61,848 nt of DNA from Phormidium tenue FACHB-1050. GTDB taxonomy: Bacteria; Cyanobacteriota; Cyanobacteriia; Pseudanabaenales; Pseudanabaenaceae. The stretch's first letter is position 1, and each line of letters begins with the position of its first letter. The stretch spans positions 1 through 61,848 of the forward strand of contig NZ_JACJQY010000034.1 in NCBI RefSeq assembly GCF_014696925.1. The letters run 5' to 3'. The notes beneath the pieces were generated by a model that saw nothing but the letters and a program-made list of their open reading frames with translations, was not told where the DNA came from and did not search any database. The translations under genes were made by a program, and so were the position numbers. Of this stretch, positions 4,880-61,848 are shown in pieces.

Positions 4880-5009
4880 GCTTGGGTTAAAAATCTAGTT
4901 ATCTAGAATTTATCAGAAATACAGCCCAAAAAAATCATTTACACAATAAAATCTGATAATATTTAATCAAATAAAGCTTTTAAAGAGCTTTTTCTATGAT
5001 TTATGTACT
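4880..5009. promoter_or_regulatory. Divergent promoter region between the dynamin gene and the 413-residue gene
   Basis: This 130-bp gap is strongly AT-rich and separates two genes pointing away from each other. It contains a small inverted repeat CTAGTTATCTAG near 4893 and TATTTAATCAAATAAA near 4960. Both transcripts must start here or inside the genes. I cannot assign -35/-10 pairs with confidence. Confidence 0.4.
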
Positions 5010-6251
5010 ATGGATTACATCTTTTCTGGCGCAAGTCAAGCATTGCTAAATTCTGGTCAATTGGTACAGGTAATATCAAAAGCAGGTCAACTGTTACCAA
5101 TAGTAAGAGATCCGATTACAGGTAGATTTATAGAAATGGCGATTGGAGTCAGTTCATCTTGTTGTAATCCTTTAGCGATTCCAGTACAGGTTGCTATGGG
5201 TGGTTTGCAAATGTACCAAACTCATAAAGGATTTACTGCGGTATTAGGTGGAATCACACAGATTCAGCAAACTTTAGGAGTATTACAAGCCACAACAGCA
5301 TTAATCGGGGTGGGAACGATCGCAAATGTAGCAATTTCCGCAGCAAGCTTACATCAAATCCTGAAACTACGCGAAGACGTTCGCCAAATGCGCGTTGAGA
5401 TTAAAGATGGCTTTATTGACCTCAAAAAAGCACTTAAAGATCAAGGTACTGAAATCTTAAATCACATTGATGAAGTCGCCACAGACATCAAATTTGAACA
5501 GCATCGAGTCGTTCTCATTCGTGCCTATGGTCAGTTTTTGCAAGCCATTGAGCTAATTAAATCCGCCTTAGCTTGTGACGACATTAAAATTAAAGATCAC
5601 GATTTAGCCAATGCCCGACAAATGCTTTCTATAGCCCTTGGAGACTATCGCAATCCTCAACTACTTTCCGATCTTTCAGCAATCGGGCAACTCAGAAGAA
5701 AGGAATGTGCTTGGGCGATCGAGCAGATGATCATCATGACCTACCAAATCCAAAAGCAATCAGGAGCAGTTACCCACAGACTCCAAAATCTACAAAACAG
5801 TATTTGTCAAGATATTTTGAATGTGAGCGAGGCTGTAGAGTACCAAGAAGAAATAGACCTACTCTATCCAGAAATTAACCGTATTTGCACCCAAGATCTC
5901 GCAGTTCTGTCATCTTGGCAAGAACAATCAGAATGGATTCAATCTTTACCCGCTTCTGACTTGAAATTACTAGAAAGCTCTGAACTAAGCCCAGTTCCTC
6001 AAGAAATGACCTCTGCACTTAGCAGCTTTGAAGTTCCCGAACAAAAAATCTATGACGAGTTAAAACCAAAATCTCATTTTGAATCTCTTCGTGATCAACT
6101 TAAGTTAATGGCTTCACCAGACTTACGCTCAAAATATGAGTATGAAGTAGTCGAAAAAGCTCAAGCTTCGGGACATAAAGCTTTAAAAGCAGATGTAGTT
6201 AAACAATCGTCTGATATGGCGATCGCTAATCTATACTACTACTTCCAATAA
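5010..6251 (+). CDS. Unknown protein with hydrophobic glycine-rich segment, divergent partner of the dynamin
   Basis: A 413-residue protein I do not recognise. Residues 1-65 are amphipathic. Residues 65-115 are hydrophobic and rich in Gly, Ala and Ile (AVLGGITQIQQTLGVLQATT, then GVGTIANVAISAAS), enough for a membrane hairpin. Residues 115-165 read as a charged coiled coil (REDVRQMRVEIKDGFIDLKK). The rest is helical and hydrophilic. There is no signal peptide. A helical protein with one buried hydrophobic hairpin next to a dynamin recalls alpha-helical pore formers, but this is only analogy. A 72-bp relative of its 3' end recurs at 7036-7107. The ATG at 5010 has no clear ribosome-binding site. 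Confidence 0.75.
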   Translation: MDYIFSGASQALLNSGQLVQVISKAGQLLPIVRDPITGRFIEMAIGVSSSCCNPLAIPVQVAMGGLQMYQTHKGFTAVLGGITQIQQTLGVLQATTALIGVGTIANVAISAASLHQILKLREDVRQMRVEIKDGFIDLKKALKDQGTEILNHIDEVATDIKFEQHRVVLIRAYGQFLQAIELIKSALACDDIKIKDHDLANARQMLSIALGDYRNPQLLSDLSAIGQLRRKECAWAIEQMIIMTYQIQKQSGAVTHRLQNLQNSICQDILNVSEAVEYQEEIDLLYPEINRICTQDLAVLSSWQEQSEWIQSLPASDLKLLESSELSPVPQEMTSALSSFEVPEQKIYDELKPKSHFESLRDQLKLMASPDLRSKYEYEVVEKAQASGHKALKADVVKQSSDMAIANLYYYFQ

Positions 6252-54814: not shown

Positions 54815-56423
54815 ATGGATAAGAAAAAAGTATTATTGCTATCGGCGAATCCTGCGAATACCGATCGCTTGCGGGTTGAGGCGGAATTTCGGGAAATTGA
54901 GGAATGTTGTCAGAAGTCGAGCTTGCGCGATCGCTTTGCCATTGTGACTAAAGGCGCAGTCCGAATCGATGACTTGCAACCAATTTTGCTTCAGGAAGTA
55001 CCGCGTGTGGTGCATTTCTCAGGGCATGGGGCGGCGGAAAATGGGTTGGTGTTAGAACATGATGATGGCACTTGGCAACTCGCACCCACTGAGGCTCTAG
55101 CAGATTTGTTTCGGATTCTCCAAAATGGCATCGATTGCGTGGTGCTGAATGCTTGTTTCTCAAAGGTGCAAGCGGAGGCGATCGCCCGTTATGTGCCTTA
55201 CGTTTTAGGGATGAATCAGGCGATCGGTGATGTGGCGGCGATCGAGTTTGCCAAGGGATTTTATGGGGCTTTATTTGAGGGGAAATCAGTTAAAGATGCT
55301 TTTGAGTTGGGAAAAAATCTGATTGCTCTCAAAAATATTCCTGAAACGCAAACGCCTGTGTTGTTAGAACGCCGTTATGAAAGTCAGGTTTTACCGAAGG
55401 TAAATATAGCGATCGAAGAACCTGAAGGCGCGGTGCGGATTGGTTCCGAGTTTTATATTCCGCGATCGCCTCAACAGGAACAATGCTTTAAAGCGATCGC
55501 CATGCCCCATGCCCTACTGCGTTTAAAATCACCTGACCGCATGGGTAAGTCTTCGCTATTGGTGCGTGTCTTGGAAGAAGCGCGGCGGTTGGATAGTCGC
55601 ACCACATGGTTAGATTTGCAAAAATGCGATCGCAAGTTCTTTGAAAATATGGATCGCTTCTTGCAGTGGTTTTGTGCGGTGATTGGGCGTGATTTGGGAG
55701 TGAAGGCAAAACCAACTGATGATTGGGATGAAATGTTTGGCGCAAACAGCAACTGTGAGGAATTTTTTGAAAGATATTTGTTAAATAACGACGACGATCG
55801 CCCGTTAGTGATTGCGATTGAAAACTTGGATCGGATATTTCTACACGAAGCGATCGAGGTGGATTTTTGCGGTTTATTGCGCGGTTGGCATGAGCAGGGC
55901 AAACATGACAAAAGATGGGGCAAGTTGCGCCTAGTGCTTGCCTATTCGATGGAATCTTTTACAACGAAGGATATTAACCAATCACCGTTTAATGTGGGCA
56001 CGCCCATTAGATTTGGATGAATTTACCTTTGCTCAAGTGCAGGAACTTGCCGCAATGCATGGATTCTCCTCTACACAAATCGAACCAATATCAGAATTAA
56101 TCGGTGGACATCCCTATCTAGTACGACTAGCTTTTTATAATTTAGCTAGTGGCGCAAATTCTCTTGAGCAGTTCATCCAAACTGCGGCGACGGAAGTGGG
56201 GCTTTTTGGCAAACATCTCACCACTCGTTTAGCCAAGGTCGAAAAAGATGCTCATCTTACGGAAGTTTTGCGATCGCTGGTTAATTCACCGCAACCCATA
56301 CGTTTTGATCTTGCCACTACAGCAAAGCTAGATGGAATGGGTTTAATATTACGCACAGAGACTGGTGTAAAGATCCGCAATGAGCTATATAGGCGCTATT
56401 TCCAAAACCGTTTAGGAGTGTAA
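54815..56423 (+). pseudogene. CHAT protease-AAA-like ATPase gene with a one-base frameshift
   Basis: The first frame (54815-56020) encodes a CHAT caspase-like domain with His in VVHFSGHGAAENG (near 70) and Cys in CVVLNACFSKVQAEA (near 112). An AAA_35-type ATPase begins RIGSEFYIPRSPQQEQ, with P-loop DRMGKSSLLVRVLEE and the acidic VIAIENLDRIF. It stops just after NVGTPIRFG. One base is extra in the TTT at 56012-56014: deleting one T gives GTPIRLDEFTFAQVQELAAM and an open frame to 56423 that completes the domain (HPYLVRLAFYNLAS). Related bacterial genes couple CHAT proteolysis to ATPase sensing in defence. Could be a sequencing error. Confidence 0.82.
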
Positions 56424-56426
56424 CCA

Positions 56427-57047
56427 ATGCCTAAAACTTTACAAGCATCAGAAATTGATTTGGCAAAGCTAGAGGAACTTTTTGCGATCGCGCAATCGAG
56501 TGATACCGATTTCTTTGATGAGTGGCGCGGTAATTTGCCTAAGCTCAACGACACTGAACAGTTAAGCCTTGACGATCTCAAAGAAGATTATCTACACCTG
56601 TCGAAACATTCTCTATTGGAACCGCTTGTAAAAATGGTGGTGCTATCGCCGATTCTGAAACTAGCAGGTTTCTATCGCAATCCTTTCTATCTCAAAGCCG
56701 AGCAGGTGGTGAATATTCTCTCCCAAGATCAAGATATTCTTGTTCAAGGACGAATTGATGTTTTGGTATTTAAACCGCCTTTTTGGGTAGTCGTGATTGA
56801 GGCAAAGAGAGCGGCTTATTCTGTAGAAGTTGGCATTCCCCAAGCCTTAACTTACATGATGGCAAATCCCCACCCTGATCGCCCTGTTTTTGGACTGGTT
56901 ACGAATGGCAGTGAGTTTATCTTTCTAAAACTTCAGCTTCAAGACAGCCTAAAATATGCCGAATCAGATCTATTCTCAATCAAGCGTGGCAATGATTTAT
57001 ATACAGTTGTCAGTATTTTGAAACATCTTGCTCAATTAGCCATATGA
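56427..57047 (+). CDS. PD-(D/E)XK nuclease-fold protein (restriction-like)
   Basis: A 206-residue protein. The nuclease core is VQGRIDVLVFKPPFWVVVIEAKR at about residues 110-132, giving D(x)n ExK with the final A-K-R, as in HsdR N-terminal domains. It continues with VGIPQALTYMMANPHPDRP and FGLVTNGSEFIFLKL. It begins 3 bp after the stop of the CHAT-AAA gene, so the two were co-translated. It may act as the effector nuclease of that system or as an orphan type I restriction fragment. It is intact. Confidence 0.85.
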   Translation: MPKTLQASEIDLAKLEELFAIAQSSDTDFFDEWRGNLPKLNDTEQLSLDDLKEDYLHLSKHSLLEPLVKMVVLSPILKLAGFYRNPFYLKAEQVVNILSQDQDILVQGRIDVLVFKPPFWVVVIEAKRAAYSVEVGIPQALTYMMANPHPDRPVFGLVTNGSEFIFLKLQLQDSLKYAESDLFSIKRGNDLYTVVSILKHLAQLAI

Positions 57048-57102: not shown

Positions 57103-57804
57103 ATGGTAATTTCAGCACCTGCGATTAAACCAGTCAACCCACCCGAATATCCCTCTAGTGATGGTGAGCCTGTGGCAGAAACCTACGACCATTTTTATGC
57201 GATCGCCATACTCTTAGAAATGCTGCGGCAATATCTAACGGGTCGACAAGCGACGGTTTTGGGCAATCAGTTTCTTTACTATGCCCAAGGATTCCCCAGA
57301 ATGCGTGTGGCTCCCGATGTGATGGTAATTTTTGATGTGGCGGCTGGCGGTCGGGACAATTATAAAATTTGGGAAGAGGGACAAGTACCTGCGGTGATTT
57401 TTGAAATCACCTCCAAAAGTACTCAGATTACTGATATTGGCTTTAAGCGCGATCTCTATGCTCAGATGGGTGTGCAGGAATATTGGCTATTTGACCCGAA
57501 AAATGAATGGTTAGAGCAGCAATTGCAAGGTTATCGCCTCAAGGGTGAAGAATATGAGCCGATTATCGACGGACAGAGTTTAGTTTTATGGTTGCAGCTA
57601 TCGATTGAGGACAAAAAAATTGCCTTGCATCGTTTGGACAATGGCGAAAAGTTACCTTTTCCCTCTGAGCTTGCTGAACAAGTAAATCAAGAGCGGCAAG
57701 CTAAATTAGATGCTGAACAAGCAAAACTGCAAGCTGAACAGGCAAAACAGGAGCTTGAGGTACTATTGCAACGCTACCGCGATCGCTATGGAGACTTAGA
57801 ATAA
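57103..57804 (+). CDS. Uma2-family PD-(D/E)XK protein
   Basis: A 233-residue Uma2 protein. Typical blocks: YPSSDGEPVAETYDHFYAIA at the start, the Asp in MRVAPDVMVIFDVAAGGRDN, the E-x-S-x-S/K motif in VPAVIFEITSKSTQITDIGFKRDLYAQMGVQEYWLFDP, and a C-terminal coiled coil (QAKLDAEQAKLQAEQAKQEL) of heptad KQAE-type repeats. Uma2 genes occur in many copies in cyanobacteria; the function is unresolved and a nuclease is inferred from the fold. Confidence 0.9.
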   Translation: MVISAPAIKPVNPPEYPSSDGEPVAETYDHFYAIAILLEMLRQYLTGRQATVLGNQFLYYAQGFPRMRVAPDVMVIFDVAAGGRDNYKIWEEGQVPAVIFEITSKSTQITDIGFKRDLYAQMGVQEYWLFDPKNEWLEQQLQGYRLKGEEYEPIIDGQSLVLWLQLSIEDKKIALHRLDNGEKLPFPSELAEQVNQERQAKLDAEQAKLQAEQAKQELEVLLQRYRDRYGDLE

Positions 57805-57816
57805 CTAATTAAAATT

Positions 57817-58215
57817 ATGAGTCAAATTACCGTTCAAACTCAACTTCCCTTTGAGCAGCTTATTCAAACTGTAGAACAGCTAGATTCGTCTGAGCTAGAA
57901 CAATTGATTGCCAAAGCAATCCGAGTTCAGACTAAGCGCAAAACTCTTAGCTTGCCAAAGGATCAATCTTTGCTATTGCAACAAATTACTCAATGTATTC
58001 CCAATCAACTACAAGAGCGCTATGACTTGCTTATTGGTAAGCGTCAAGATAACGCCCTTACGGATGAAGAATACCAAGAGTTAATCAACCTAGGAGAACA
58101 TATTGAAGCAATTGATGTTAAAAGGTTAGAAAATTTAACTAAACTTGCGAAACTTCGACAAATATCTTTGAATGAGCTAATCCAAGAGTTTCAGTTACAA
58201 CCACAGGCTTTATGA
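57817..58215 (+). CDS. Small helical protein paired with an HNH nuclease
   Basis: A 132-residue protein that I do not recognise by family. FEQLIQTVEQLDSSELEQLI is followed by a Lys-rich linker and YDLLIGKRQDNALTDEEYQELINLGEHIE, then KLAKLRQISLNELIQEFQL. It reads as all-helical and resembles small proteins that precede HNH genes in other cyanobacteria. The stop overlaps the HNH ATG by 4 bp (ATGA at 58212), indicating coupled translation. A possible antitoxin-like or adaptor role is inferred from that arrangement. Confidence 0.65.
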   Translation: MSQITVQTQLPFEQLIQTVEQLDSSELEQLIAKAIRVQTKRKTLSLPKDQSLLLQQITQCIPNQLQERYDLLIGKRQDNALTDEEYQELINLGEHIEAIDVKRLENLTKLAKLRQISLNELIQEFQLQPQAL

Positions 58216-58637
58216 CGGCTAAATCAATCAGCGAAAAGCTTCGTCAAATAGTCACGGAAAGAGCAAAAGGTTGTTGTGAATATTGTCTTAGCCAAGAGAC
58301 TTACTCTACACAGAGGCTTTCGGTTGAGCATATTATTCCAATTTGGAAAAATGGTGAAACTACAGTTGATAATCTTGCTCTCGCTTGTCAAGGCTGCAAC
58401 AATTACAAACACACTAAAACTCAAGCAATTGACCCCATAACTTCACAAGTAACAGATCTCTATCATCCTAGACAACAGCAATGGAATGAGCATTTTACTT
58501 GGAATGATGATTACAGTGAAATCATTGGTTTAACGCCCACAGGACGAGTAACTGTAGAATTGCTTAAACTCAATCGTCAAGGAGTTGTCAATCTGCGTCG
58601 TATTCTCTATACAACAGGAAATCACCCGCCATTATGA
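58212..58637 (+). CDS. HNH endonuclease
   Basis: A 141-residue HNH nuclease. A zinc knuckle is formed by CCEYCLSQ near residue 22 and CQGCNNYKHTKT near 60. The catalytic segment is SVEHIIPIWKNGETTVDNLALACQGCN, with the central His and Asn of the beta-beta-alpha-metal motif intact. It overlaps the AAA-WD40 gene start by ATGA (58634-58637) and the gene before by the same, so three genes are tightly coupled. It is a plausible effector for the ATPase downstream. Confidence 0.88.
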   Translation: MTAKSISEKLRQIVTERAKGCCEYCLSQETYSTQRLSVEHIIPIWKNGETTVDNLALACQGCNNYKHTKTQAIDPITSQVTDLYHPRQQQWNEHFTWNDDYSEIIGLTPTGRVTVELLKLNRQGVVNLRRILYTTGNHPPL

Positions 58638-59854
58638 CTAGTGCTAGCTCTTTTAATTATCAAGTTGGTGGTAGTCTCCCTGCGGATGCGCCTAGTTATG
58701 TGGAGCGCCAATGCGATCGCGACTATTACGAGTTGCTTAAGGAGCGTAAGTATTGCTATGTGTTTAACTGTCGGCAGATGGGGAAGTCGAGTTTGCGGGT
58801 GCGGGTGACGCATAAGTTGCAAGCGGAGAGGATTGTGTGCGCGACGATCGATCCGCAGAAGATTGGGGTGGAGGTGACTTGCGAGCAGTGGTATGCCAGC
58901 GCGATTCGGAGTTTGGTGGGGGATTTGGATTTAAAAAATAAGTTTGATTTGCGGAGTTGGATTAGGGAACGGGAATTGCTGTCGCCTGTGCAGCGATTTG
59001 CGGAGTTTATTGAAATAGTCGTGTTGCAAGAGATTGATGCGCCGATTGTGATTTTTGTGGAGGAAATAGATCGCCTTTTGAGTCTCAAGTTTGGCATGGA
59101 TGATTTCTTTGGTTTGGTGCGATCGTTTTTTGAAGATCGTCCGACTAAGCCCGAATATAATCGTCTCACTTTTTCCTTTTTGGGTGTGGCGACACCGACG
59201 GATTTGATTCAGAGTCATAATACTTCGGCGTTTAATATTGGCTATGCGGTGGAGATGGCGGGGTTTACGCTGACGGAGGCTTTGCCATTGATGCAGGGTT
59301 TGGCGAGTAAGGTGGCGAATCCGCAGGATTATCTAGCCGAGGCGGTGAAGTGGACGGGTGGACAGCCTTTTCTGATTCAACGGTTGTTGGGAATGATGGA
59401 GAAGGAGTTAGCAGGAATCGCACCACCTGAGAATATTGCGGGTTGGGTTGAGAATTTAGTACAGGAGCGAATTGTCACGAATTGGGAATCGCAGGATGCG
59501 CCGCCACATTTGACGACGATTAGGGATCGCGTGATTAGTGTAGAAGAGAAGTTACGGGGACGGATGTTGGGTTGCTATCAGCAGGTGTTGGCGGATGGGG
59601 AGTTGGAAGATGATCGCAGTGAGGAGCGATCGAAGTTGCGGTTGACGGGGTTGGTGGTGCGACGGGATGGGCGGTTGATTTCCTATAATCCAATCTATGG
59701 GGCGGTGTTTAATAATGCATGGGTTGAGGGGCAGTTAGCGGATTTGCGTCCAGAGTTTTATGGTTCGGCGTTTCGGGCATGGCGGGATGCGGAGCAGAAG
59801 GATGGTTTTTTGGGTAGTGTTTCACATTTGTTGGGGAGAAAATACCAAGCATAG
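58634..59854 (+). CDS. AAA-like ATPase, N-terminal part, cut short by an inserted element
   Basis: A 406-residue frame of the AAA_35 family. P-loop-like NCRQMGKSSLRVRVTHKLQ is near residue 46, acidic Walker B-like IVIFVEEIDRLLSLK near 140, and FIGVATPTDL-type sensor and helical C-terminal parts follow (GGQPFLIQRLLGMMEKE). The last about 17 codons, after DAEQKDGFL, are read from the inserted element and stop at 59852-59854. The native protein continued DAEQKDGFLLRGEAL (59934 on). Paralogous in domain type to the CHAT-AAA gene. It may still produce a truncated ATPase. Confidence 0.85.
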   Translation: MTSASSFNYQVGGSLPADAPSYVERQCDRDYYELLKERKYCYVFNCRQMGKSSLRVRVTHKLQAERIVCATIDPQKIGVEVTCEQWYASAIRSLVGDLDLKNKFDLRSWIRERELLSPVQRFAEFIEIVVLQEIDAPIVIFVEEIDRLLSLKFGMDDFFGLVRSFFEDRPTKPEYNRLTFSFLGVATPTDLIQSHNTSAFNIGYAVEMAGFTLTEALPLMQGLASKVANPQDYLAEAVKWTGGQPFLIQRLLGMMEKELAGIAPPENIAGWVENLVQERIVTNWESQDAPPHLTTIRDRVISVEEKLRGRMLGCYQQVLADGELEDDRSEERSKLRLTGLVVRRDGRLISYNPIYGAVFNNAWVEGQLADLRPEFYGSAFRAWRDAEQKDGFLGSVSHLLGRKYQA

Positions 59855-59925
59855 GCTATAAAAAATGCTGGTATAGGTTTGCCGTTTTTATCAATTACCT
59901 GGTTCAACAAATGTGACACACTACC
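59813..59925. mobile_element. 113-bp MITE-like element with 8-bp target duplication
   Basis: The terminal inverted repeats are 21 bp with one mismatch: left begins GGTAGTGTTTCACATTTG, right ends CAAATGTGACACACTACC. The element is flanked on both sides by GTTTTTTG (59805-59812 and 59926-59933). It has no open reading frame. Removing the element and one GTTTTTTG restores KDGFLLRGEA without any frame change, which is decisive for a transposition event. Its mobilising transposase is not in this window. The family is not assigned; the 8-bp duplication is compatible with several IS families. Confidence 0.93.
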
Positions 59926-59933
59926 GTTTTTTG

Positions 59934-61848
59934 TTGCGGGGTGAGGCGCTGAAGAATGCGGATGAGTGGGCGCGGGGTAAGCGACTCAGTGATGCGGATG
60001 AGTTTTTTTTGCGGGAGAGTCGGGAGGTTGAGAAGGTTGAGAGTAATCTCAAGCTAGAGGCGGAACGTCAGGCGAGGGAAACTGCGGAACAGGAAAGATT
60101 AATCGCGCTGAGGCAGCAGGAAATCGCTGAGGAGGAGGCGCGGGTTTTAGAGGAAAGGGCGATCATTTTAGATGATGCGAAGCAAAAGGCGGATCGCAGG
60201 GTGAAGATAGGTTCGGCAATTTTGGCGGTGACTTTGGCTTTGGCGACGGGTGCGGGGTTATGGGCGGCGCGATCGGTGAATGAGGCGAATGTGAAGGTTG
60301 CAGATACAAGGAAAGAGGCTGAGACTAAAGTTAAGGATGCCGATCAGAAGGTAGCTTTGGCAAATAAAGATGCTGAACAAATTGGAAAGAATGCAGAAAA
60401 AGAGAAAAGAGATGCAGCGCAGGCAGTGAGAGAGGCTCTAGCAAAAAAAAAAGAAGCGGATGAGAAGGTGACATCGGCGCAAAAGGATTTGGAATCGGCG
60501 AAGACTGAGTTAGCGAATGTGTCACAAGAGTCGGCGGAGAAGGTGGCTGAGGCACAAGCGAAAATTGCGGATGCGGAAGGGAAGGTAAAGGTTGCCTTAG
60601 CGGAACAGGCAAAGGCGGCACTGGCAGTGAAGATTGCAACTGATGATATTCAAATTGCTGATGCAAGGATCAAGAGTCTCGATGCTAAGGGAGACTTTCA
60701 GGGAGATCAGGTATTTGACGCTTTGGTTAAGGCGGTTAGTGCGGGACGGAAACTCAAGGACTTAGATCCTGAAGTTGCCAAGCGAGACAGGGCAAATACG
60801 CAAATGTTGGTGACTGCGAATTTGTCGCGGTTTGTCTATGGAGTCCAAGAAAAAAATCGCTTTGCTCATAGCAATATTGTCGATAGCGTAGCCTTTAGTC
60901 CCGATGGCAAGACTATTGCCACAGGAAGTTGGGACAAGACCGTCAAATTGTGGAATCTGGAAGGAAAAGAAATCCAAACATTCAAAGGGCATAGCGATAT
61001 TGTCCGCAGCGTAGCCTTTAGTCCCGATGGCAAGACCATAGCAACAGGCAGTAATGACTACACCGTCAAATTGTGGAATCTAGAAGGAAAAGAAATCCAA
61101 ACATTCAAAGGGCATAGCGATAGTGTCTTGAGCATAGCCTTTAGTCCCGATGGCAAGACCATTGCCACAGGCAGTTGGGACAAGACCGTCAAATTGTGGA
61201 ATCTGGAAGGAAAAGAAATCCAAACATTCAAAGGGCATAGCGATAGTGTCTTGAGCGTAGCCTTTAGTCCCGATGGCAAGACCATTGCCACAGGCAGTTG
61301 GGACGGCTCCGTCAAATTGTGGAATCTGGAAGGAAAAGAAATCCAAACATTCAAAGGGCATAGCGATAGTGTCTTGAGCGTAGCCTTTAGTCCCGATGGC
61401 AAGACCATTGCCACAGGCAGTTGGGACGGCTCCGTCAAATTGTGGAATCTGGAAGGAAAAGAAATCCAAACATTCAAAGGGCATAGCGATAGTGTCTTGA
61501 GCGTAGCCTTTAGTCCCGATGGCAAGACCATTGCCACAGGCAGTAATGACAAAACCGTCAAATTGTGGAATCTGGAAGGAAAAGAAACCCAAACATTCAA
61601 AGGGCATAGTGATAGTGTCGGTGACGTAGCCTTTAGTCCCGATGGCAAGACCATTGCCACGGGAAGTTCCGACAAAACCGTCAAATTGTGGAATCTGGAA
61701 GGAAAAGAAATCCAAACATTCAAAGGGCATAGTGATAGTGTCGGTGACGTAGCCTTTAGTCCCGATGGCAAGACCATTGCCACGGGAAGTTCCGATAAAA
61801 CCGTCAAATTGTGGAATCTGGAAGGAAAAGAAATCCAAACCTTGACAG
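59934..61848 (+). pseudogene. C-terminal part of the AAA-WD40 gene, after the insertion, running off the window
   Basis: The frame beginning LRGEALKNADEWARGKRLSD stays open to the last base. It contains a charged coiled coil (ESREVEKVESNLKLEAERQA), one membrane helix (KIGSAILAVTLALATGAGLW), a second long coiled coil rich in Ala, Lys and Glu up to about 60800, and then eight WD40 repeats of 41 residues from 60867. AAA-TM-coiled coil-WD40 is a common cyanobacterial layout. The natural start is lost to the insertion; internal starts such as GTG or ATG codons could still allow a separate product. Confidence 0.88.
60867..61848 (+). repeat. Array of eight near-identical WD40-coding units (123 bp each)
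   Basis: Units start at 60867, 60990, 61113, 61236, 61359, 61482, 61605 and 61728; the last is cut by the window end. Each encodes HSxxVxxVAFSPDGKTIATG followed by SxDxTVKLWNLEGKEIQTF. DNA identity between neighbours is very high and mismatches cluster at the same few codons. The array continues beyond the window, so its total number is unknown. Confidence 0.95.

What the first reader, a model, noticed from the sequence alone, without database searches (positions are those of the whole stretch)
60867..61848. WD40 units homogenised except at a few residues, as in recognition domains under diversifying pressure
Eight 41-residue units are almost identical. Variation is limited to three places: after HSxxV (DS, RS, LS, GD), the residue before Asp in GSxD (W, N, S), and the residues after it (KT, YT, GS). 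In WD40 blades these lie near loop or top-face positions that contact ligands. Established knowledge: fungal NWD immune receptors show the same pattern of high internal identity with variable surface codons, maintained by repeat shuffling. Here the repeats sit behind an AAA ATPase and a membrane helix.
Basis: partly seen in the sequence, partly recalled or inferred. Interest (0 to 1): 0.72.

Follow-up and report, generated by a model that had tools for sequence, protein, structure and literature searches.

The report
Broken receptor gene with hypervariable propeller
In a Pseudanabaena cyanobacterium, a bacterial immune-receptor-like gene pair carries a freshly amplified ring of near-identical WD40 blades that differ mainly at a few likely ligand-facing residues; relatives keep the engine but swap the sensor, and in this genome both genes of the pair look broken.

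Summary
The array is real: eight 41-residue WD40 units (mean DNA identity 90%) running into the contig end. Another contig of the genome holds the 3' end (11-12 units seen in all); a single-contig relative has 14. Amino-acid differences concentrate at the four codons diversified in fungal HET-D/E (65% of non-synonymous differences, 10% expected), above a neutral simulation in four separate arrays; in a fixed-sensor paralog these positions are conserved. New is the context. The array is the sensor end of an AAA_35-helix-WD40 protein, split by a 113-bp IS1-type MITE with an 8-bp target duplication. Upstream lies a partner CHAT-AAA_35 gene, frameshifted here, with no break seen in ten congeners. 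Those keep the sensor ATPase 89-97% identical to this one, while the C-terminus ranges from various WD40 arrays to TPR-like or unmatched modules, with leftover WD40 tails in two genomes. Best reading: a WRAP-like two-ATPase recognition system, turned over fast and probably inactive in this strain. Ligand and output are unproven; both lesions come from a draft assembly.

The parts
54815..56020 (+). Partner gene, 5' piece: CHAT protease-like domain + first part of AAA_35 ATPase (401 aa ORF)
   Evidence: Pfam CHAT 1e-8 and AAA_35 5e-68; HFSGHG and NAC motif regions present (their catalytic role is recalled); 92.7-97.5% identical over 398 residues to the relatives seen in full length
55938..56423 (+). 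Partner gene, 3' piece: rest of AAA_35 in another frame (161 aa ORF); frame lost near 56,000-56,020
   Evidence: Pfam AAA_35 positions 195-331; the length differs by one base from 9 of 9 ortholog stretches compared; no break seen in the orthologous ORF of 10 of 10 congeners (G021 only in two overlapping fetches)
56427..57047 (+). 206-aa ORF between the pair (weak HSDR_N similarity, just below the Pfam cut-off): variable cargo
57103..57804 (+). Uma2-family gene between the pair: variable cargo
   Evidence: Pfam Uma2 1e-19; part of the cargo that differs between congeners
57817..58215 (+). 132-aa ORF overlapping the HNH gene: variable cargo
   Evidence: no Pfam or NCBIfam match; start/stop overlap read from the sequence
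58212..58637 (+). HNH nuclease gene whose stop overlaps the sensor-ATPase start
   Evidence: Pfam HNH 4.5e-13; in the 7 of 58 genomes (own included) with a copy at 94% identity or more it abuts this AAA_35 gene in all 7
58634..59812 (+). Sensor gene, 5' part: AAA_35 ATPase domain (393 residues before the insertion; the ORF runs on into the MITE and stops at 59854)
   Evidence: Pfam AAA_35 6e-27; 10 of 25 other genomes of the genus have it at 89-97% identity up to residue 389-393, all 10 open beyond it
59805..59812 (.). Target-site duplication, left copy (8 bp)
   Evidence: single copy at the empty site of G010 and G020
59813..59925 (.). 113-bp MITE with 21-nt terminal inverted repeats, IS1 type
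   Evidence: second copy on contig C32, identical over 101 bp; a terminal 22-nt stretch is found at both ends of an IS1 element on C70; no match in 14 ortholog loci from 10 genomes
59926..59933 (.). Target-site duplication, right copy (8 bp)
   Evidence: sequence
59913..61847 (+). Sensor gene, 3' part: linker, membrane helix, coiled-coil-like region, WD40 array (645 aa, open at the contig end; its first in-frame start is a GTG inside the MITE)
   Evidence: 'coiled-coil-like' is read by eye from the sequence
60201..60269 (+). Predicted membrane helix, positively charged on its N-terminal side
   Evidence: hydropathy scan
60864..61847 (+). Eight WD40 units of 41 residues; most variable codons are unit positions 7, 9, 25, 27
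61848..61848 (.). Contig end inside the array; 3' part with one partial and three more units and the conserved tail is on contig C33:1-516 of the same genome

Best explanation
The array is the sensor end of one half of a two-gene, NLR-like recognition system of Pseudanabaena. Gene 1 is a CHAT protease-like domain fused to an AAA_35 ATPase (proposed effector/switch). Gene 2 is a diverged AAA_35 ATPase followed by one membrane helix, a coiled-coil-like stretch and a recently amplified WD40 sensor of 11-12 or more blades. Proposed mechanism (inferred): a ligand binds the top faces of the propellers through residues 7, 9, 25 and 27 of each blade; the sensor ATPase then engages the partner ATPase and unleashes the CHAT protease. 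Shown: the pair, the domains, the diversified codons, the turnover of the C-terminus between species, and, in the assembly, the two lesions in this genome (MITE in the sensor gene, frameshift in the partner), which most likely leave the system inactive here. Inferred: that it is a recognition system, that the ATPases interact, the ligand, the output, and the side of the membrane on which the sensor lies.
For: Diversification: 65% of non-synonymous differences in four preset codons; above neutral simulation in four separate arrays (0, 10, 0 and 0 of 2000 runs); 9 of 11 units in this gene and 14 of 14 in the single-contig G002 genome have different combinations at those codons. Not merely unconstrained: in the same-family paralog on C34 the four positions are as conserved between species (0.84) as other unit positions (0.79). 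Sensor turnover: over 21 pairs of 7 genomes ATPase identity 0.93 against 0.21 for the rest, versus 0.89 and 0.80 at the paralog locus; leftover WD40 tail after the stop in G018 and a degraded one in G021; the non-WD40 C-termini of G018 and G003 each have one other match in 58 genomes, each lying, by coordinates and frame length, in the C-terminal part of another AAA_35 protein. Pairing: effector-type domain + AAA_35 followed by AAA_35 + C-terminal part at three places in this genome and on 3 of the 5 plasmid loci read. Lesions.
Against: No experiment; no ligand; no isolates of the same species. Counted within the four codons alone, pN/pS is only 0.99 for the eight units and 1.22 for eleven (2.39 in the second gene, 2.90 in G002, no synonymous change in G010); the excess appears when they are compared with synonymous change in the other columns. 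The neutral test ignores recombination between units and rests on few synonymous changes. PADLOC has no model for the ATPase (0 matches for P0001); its models match the neighbouring HNH gene (best 5e-14) and, through WD40, the array. This array is not more homogeneous internally than it is similar to G010. The control used only the 8 units found by a pattern. The ATPase model was poor (pLDDT 58.5), so STAND-type architecture could not be tested. Both lesions sit in a draft assembly, and the one-base frameshift could be a sequencing error.
Confidence: 0.6

Rival explanations
1. Neutral amplification and decay: a single blade was recently amplified, units drift, and the variable sites are simply those with no structural role; the gene is on its way out and was never a useful sensor.
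For: The gene and its partner are broken in the assembly; G022's array is interrupted by a transposase-like ORF; pN/pS within the four codons of this array is about 1; Pereira and Lupas 2022 describe many young propellers that decay (section 18 read).
Against: Amino-acid change at the four codons exceeds the rate calibrated on the other columns in all four separate arrays; the same positions are conserved in the fixed-sensor paralog; G002 keeps an open 1281-aa gene with 14 units and 14 different combinations.
Confidence: 0.22
2. Scaffold: the propeller is an ordinary docking platform for cellular partners, and differences between species reflect different partners rather than an arms race.
For: Hu et al. 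2017 suggest that hotspot diversity adapts highly repetitive WD40 proteins to different interaction partners (passages); the C34 paralog of the same family has a stable sensor.
Against: At this locus the C-terminal part differs almost completely between species while the ATPase stays 93% identical; leftover tails mark replacement.
Confidence: 0.13
3. Assembly artefact: near-identical units were collapsed or shuffled by the assembler, so number, order and some combinations are not real.
For: The contig breaks inside the array and another contig starts inside it; a 2025 Podospora study reports short-read assemblies of such genes to be unreliable (passages of PMC12222747).
Against: The single-contig 4.7-Mb genome G002 shows the same pattern with 14 units; most codon variants at positions 9, 25 and 27 of this array occur in more than one unit (eleven units).
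Confidence: 0.05

Closest known systems
WRAP (Npun_R6612, Nostoc punctiforme; PDB 2YMU) and its paired STAND/TIR operon
   Same: Cyanobacterial ATPase followed by a highly repetitive WD40 array, gene next to a second ATPase with an N-terminal death/immunity-type domain; disruption reported; best Foldseek match of our model by E-value (57% identity). Description of the operon from PMC9218822, section 3 read.
   Different: Partner carries CHAT instead of TIR or caspase; predicted membrane helix before the array; blades here carry synonymous and non-synonymous changes, while WRAP is reported with no synonymous ones (passages of PMC6805158); cargo genes lie between the pair. Homology of the ATPases was not tested.
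Highly repetitive prokaryotic WD40 proteins (Hu et al. 2017, PMC5587647)
   Same: High internal identity with diversity at potential interaction hotspots is stated there for this class (passages only); WD40 proteins enriched in cyanobacteria.
   Different: No statement seen in those passages on sensor replacement at a fixed locus or on the AAA_35 pair.
Fungal NWD/HNWD genes (het-d, het-e; Paoletti et al. 2007, PMC1805685)
   Same: Codons 7, 9, 25, 27 variable around conserved positions 8 and 26 (passages); P-loop ATPase plus WD40; exchange of repeat units reported there.
   Different: NACHT and HET domains not found here; AAA_35, membrane helix and a separate CHAT partner instead; isolate polymorphism could not be tested.
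MoxR-vWA and EACC-type conflict systems (Kaur et al. 2020, PMC7159879; passages)
   Same: AAA_35 domains occur beside parts of such systems: a MoxR ATPase and caspases in Pseudanabaena ABRG5-3 plasmid NZ_AP017561, Trypco1 and Trypsin-TIR-AAA_35 in a Nostoc plasmid (the link of Trypco1 to these systems is recalled).
   Different: None of MoxR, vWA or Trypco1 among the ORFs scanned between 54815 and 61847; the rest of the window was not scanned.

Membership tests
AAA_35 (PF14516) | Match to the curated profile above its gathering score | tested here: met
   94.7 bits against a cut-off of 27 for the sensor ATPase; 230 and 125 bits for the two pieces of the partner
WRAP-type paired system | Near-identical WD40 blades at the C-terminus of an ATPase | tested here: met
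   Array in the window; in relatives G010, G002, G019 and G008 ATPase and WD40 units lie in one ORF, near-identical in G010; in this genome separated by the MITE
WRAP-type paired system | Adjacent second ATPase gene with N-terminal immunity/death domain | tested here: met
   CHAT-AAA_35 upstream; with other ORFs in between in 7 of 7 relatives where both genes were measured
WRAP-type paired system | That domain is TIR (with or without caspase) | tested here: not met
   CHAT, no TIR; hence filed as a variant, not a member
WRAP-type paired system | 14 blades forming two 7-bladed propellers | tested here: inconclusive
   11-12 units seen here (contig ends); 14 in G002
WRAP-type paired system | Common descent of the ATPase with that of Npun_R6612 | not tested
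   Npun_R6612 sequence not fetched
Fungal NWD (HNWD) | NACHT domain | tested here: not met
   Only AAA_35 matched P0001 at E up to 0.001
Fungal NWD (HNWD) | N-terminal HET domain (some members) | tested here: not met
Fungal NWD (HNWD) | Codons 7, 9, 25, 27 most diversified | tested here: met
   alignment of the codon register with the paper is my inference from conserved positions 8 (Val) and 26 (Asp)
Fungal NWD (HNWD) | Repeat-number polymorphism among isolates | not testable with these tools
   One genome per species
STAND ATPase | NACHT/NB-ARC-like fold with C-terminal winged helix (recalled) | tested here: inconclusive
   Model pLDDT 58.5; among solved chains only a short match to RecA around the P-loop, E 0.012 and 0.047
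IS1-derived MITE | Terminal inverted repeats shared with an IS1 element, target duplication | tested here: met
   that a duplication of about 8-9 bp is usual for IS1 is recalled
DGR target | Reverse transcriptase and template repeat close by | tested here: not met
   Four RT matches in the genome, on C67 (two), C48 and C16, none on C28 or C33; template repeat not searched

The most novel reading that the evidence does not exclude
A bacterial counterpart of a sensor/helper NLR pair: a conserved two-ATPase chassis (CHAT-AAA_35 plus AAA_35-helix) at a fixed chromosomal site whose C-terminal sensor is exchanged among AAA_35 genes, leaving orphan tails, while within WD40 sensors four ligand-face codons per blade are rewritten under diversifying selection. 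Selection would act at two levels, module and codon, for phage or kin recognition across the envelope.
Probability: 0.4. Interest if true: 0.72.

Novelty: new variant of a known kind. Interest (0 to 1): 0.5.

Why it matters
Receptors in which a switch stays fixed and the sensor is swapped or rewritten are familiar from plant, animal and fungal immunity. Here one locus in ten related cyanobacteria shows both levels at once, with a same-family fixed-sensor paralog in the same genus as a built-in control. That makes two open questions testable: what do highly repetitive bacterial WD40 propellers recognise, and how do new sensors replace old ones? It also warns that repeat number read from draft genomes is not reliable, and that this particular copy is probably dead.

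Tried and rejected
DGR-driven diversity: no reverse transcriptase on the two contigs that carry the gene; dropped, not excluded in trans. A promoter within the MITE for the 3' part: none found by consensus scan in 59750-60000 (0.3 expected by chance, so little power). Fold of the ATPase: poor model, not used; sequence search of solved structures gave only a short RecA match (E 0.012 and 0.047). Defence-system models: the WD40 part matches 'HEAT-ARM_XIII' through its repeats, and the HNH gene matches PtuB and other models (best 5e-14); not used for naming because the ATPase matched none of them. HNH as the dedicated effector: rejected as main reading, because 4 of the 10 congeners with the sensor gene lack the closely related copy and more distant relatives lie elsewhere. 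Literature on AAA_35: of 242 papers found, 15 were listed and none looked relevant by title. Strict concerted evolution per gene: only partly supported; 32 of 45 units have all their nearest neighbours in their own gene, but this array is as close to G010 as to itself.

Full report
What is in the window. The window is the complete contig C28 of a 5.6-Mb Pseudanabaena genome in 89 contigs (genus from the titles of the nearest relatives). The array is eight in-frame WD40 units of 41 residues, 60864-61847, mean pairwise DNA identity 0.902. It ends because the contig ends. Contig C33 begins inside a WD40 unit and holds three further units and a C-terminal tail. Its next genes, a uvrA-like one (named from the translation) among them, follow the orthologous gene in four relative genomes, G008, G013, G018 and G019 (six overlapping loci); in the other relatives the fetched stretch was too short or rearranged. 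The partial unit on C33 differs by at least two bases from the same half of each C28 unit, so 12 units are seen if it is distinct and 11 if not. The single-contig genome G002 has an open ortholog of 1281 residues with 14 units.

Where the variation lies. In the register of Paoletti et al. 2007, in which codons 7, 9, 25 and 27 are diversified around conserved 8 and 26 (passages; the register is my inference from the conserved Val and Asp), these four columns hold 65% of the non-synonymous differences among the eight units, 42% in a second 1846-residue gene of the same genome, 37% in G002 and 48% in G010 (expected 9.8%; permutation p about 1e-5, 4e-5, 1e-5 and 0.002). A neutral simulation on a tree of the other columns, scaled to their synonymous divergence, reached the observed pN in 0, 10, 0 and 0 of 2000 runs. 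Against this, pN/pS counted inside the four codons alone is 0.99 for the eight units, 1.22 for eleven, 2.39 in the second gene and 2.90 in G002. In the confident model of the eight units (pLDDT 96.4) positions 7, 25 and 27 are loop in 8 of 8 units and position 9 is the second residue of strand a; burial was not computed because no coordinates were given. Tryptophan, asparagine and serine at position 25 are encoded TGG, AAT or AAC, and TCC, two or three bases apart; this fits shuffling of old variants better than single steps (inference).

Is it only lack of constraint? The same family has a paralog on contig C34 whose sensor is stable: over nine genomes the four positions are 0.84 identical between orthologs, other unit positions 0.79 (the 8 units found by pattern). 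So these positions can be held, and at the C34 locus they are.

The gene is split. ATPase (ORF to 59854) and array (ORF from 59913) are in different frames. Between them lies a 113-bp element with 21-nt inverted ends, flanked by an 8-bp direct repeat that is single in the empty sites of G010 and G020. A second copy on C32 is identical over 101 bp, and one end is found on both sides of two ORFs on C70 that match IS1 transposase and InsA. 18 of 26 Pseudanabaena genomes (own included) have a match to it, two of them only to a 21-22-nt end, but it has no match in 14 ortholog loci from ten genomes. Ten of 25 other genomes of the genus have the ATPase at 89-97% identity up to residue 389-393, and all ten are open beyond.

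The partner gene. A profile search of the genome gives eight AAA_35 matches. Seven belong to three pairs: Pkinase-AAA_35 before AAA_35-WD40 on C34, Pkinase-AAA_35 before a 1412-residue AAA_35 protein on C5, and, upstream of our gene, a CHAT-AAA_35 gene (54815-56423) in two frames; the eighth, on C22, was not examined. All nine ortholog stretches compared differ from the window's by one base in length near 56,000-56,020. The ortholog is one open frame of 535-566 residues (stop to stop) in nine of ten congeners, and in G021 it is open in two overlapping fetches. The stretch between partner and sensor is 451 to 2719 bases in the seven congeners measured; in the window it holds a 206-aa ORF, Uma2, a 132-aa ORF and HNH. 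Three of five plasmid loci read show the same layout with other parts: Trypsin-TIR-AAA_35 plus AAA_35-WD40-Amidase_3; CHAT-AAA_35 plus AAA_35-GUN4; and CHAT-TIR-AAA_35 plus an AAA_35 protein without another Pfam domain. The other two are a single protein with AAA_35 and caspase beside MoxR, and an AAA_35-WD40 gene with a TIR-AAA_35 gene on the other strand.

Sensor turnover. Over 21 pairs of seven genomes the ATPase part is 0.93 identical and the rest 0.21; at the C34 control locus 0.89 and 0.80 (G010, G013, G018 not in this count). Mean identity falls from 0.81 to 0.43 between residues 391-420 and 451-480 (nine orthologs against G002). C-termini are WD40 arrays of several types, TPR-like (below the Pfam cut-off) in G021 and unmatched in G003 and G018. 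After the stop in G018 lies a WD40-type tail out of frame, and a degraded tail lies downstream in G021. The C-termini of G018 and G003 have one other match each in 58 genomes, inside AAA_35 genes of G001 and G020 as judged by coordinates and frame length. G022's array is interrupted by a transposase-like ORF (named from the translation, not searched). The hydropathy scan finds a helix in every WD40 ortholog scanned and in G018 and G021, not in G003; G013 was not scanned.

How it probably works, and what is known. Pereira and Lupas 2022 (PMC9218822; introduction and discussion read) describe WRAP, a cyanobacterial ATPase with near-identical blades, next to an ATPase with TIR or caspase, prone to disruption and suspected in innate immunity. 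Hu et al. 2017 (PMC5587647; passages) already state that highly repetitive WD40 proteins are diverse at interaction hotspots. The observation given to me is therefore a case of a described pattern. What I did not see in the listings and passages I looked at is the CHAT-AAA_35/AAA_35-WD40 pair, the replacement of sensors at one locus over an almost unchanged ATPase, or the paralog control; the original WRAP paper (Dunin-Horkawicz 2014) was not read. I propose ligand binding at the propeller faces, engagement of the two ATPases and release of the CHAT protease; this chain is inference. In the present genome both genes are interrupted in the assembly, so the system is most likely off.

Noticed in passing
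window 58212-58637 and 57817-58215: HNH gene and 132-aa ORF overlap each other and the sensor gene by a few bases; closely related HNH copies (94% or more) occur in 7 of 58 genomes, own included, and abut this gene in all 7, while more distant relatives lie elsewhere.
   Followed up: partly
L012:2373-7913 (contig C33): Second WD40-array gene of the same genome (1846 aa, 14 units, other N-terminus) shows the same four diversified codons.
   Followed up: partly
L079 (Pseudanabaena sp. ABRG5-3 plasmid NZ_AP017561, 83081-92196): AAA_35 domain inside a protein with a C-terminal caspase domain, next to a MoxR ATPase and a further caspase gene: a likely conflict system on a plasmid typed as mobilizable.
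   Followed up: partly
L080 (Nostoc sp. ATCC 53789 plasmid pNsp_e, 14454-23602): AAA_35-WD40 protein ending in an Amidase_3 cell-wall hydrolase domain, next to Trypsin-TIR-AAA_35 and Trypco1: suggests that some C-termini carry effectors.
   Followed up: partly
G024 (unnamed Pseudanabaena), several contigs: The MITE family is expanded there: 17 matches, 11 of them 92-95% identical to the window's copy over 111-113 bases.
   Followed up: no
L062 about 4968-6000: Transposase-like ORF interrupting the WD40 array of the orthologous gene in G022: a second, independent break of the same gene.
   Followed up: partly
Contig C67 10953-11585 and 24490-25122: Two reverse transcriptase matches in open frames of equal length (568 aa), 13.5 kb apart in this genome.
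   Followed up: no
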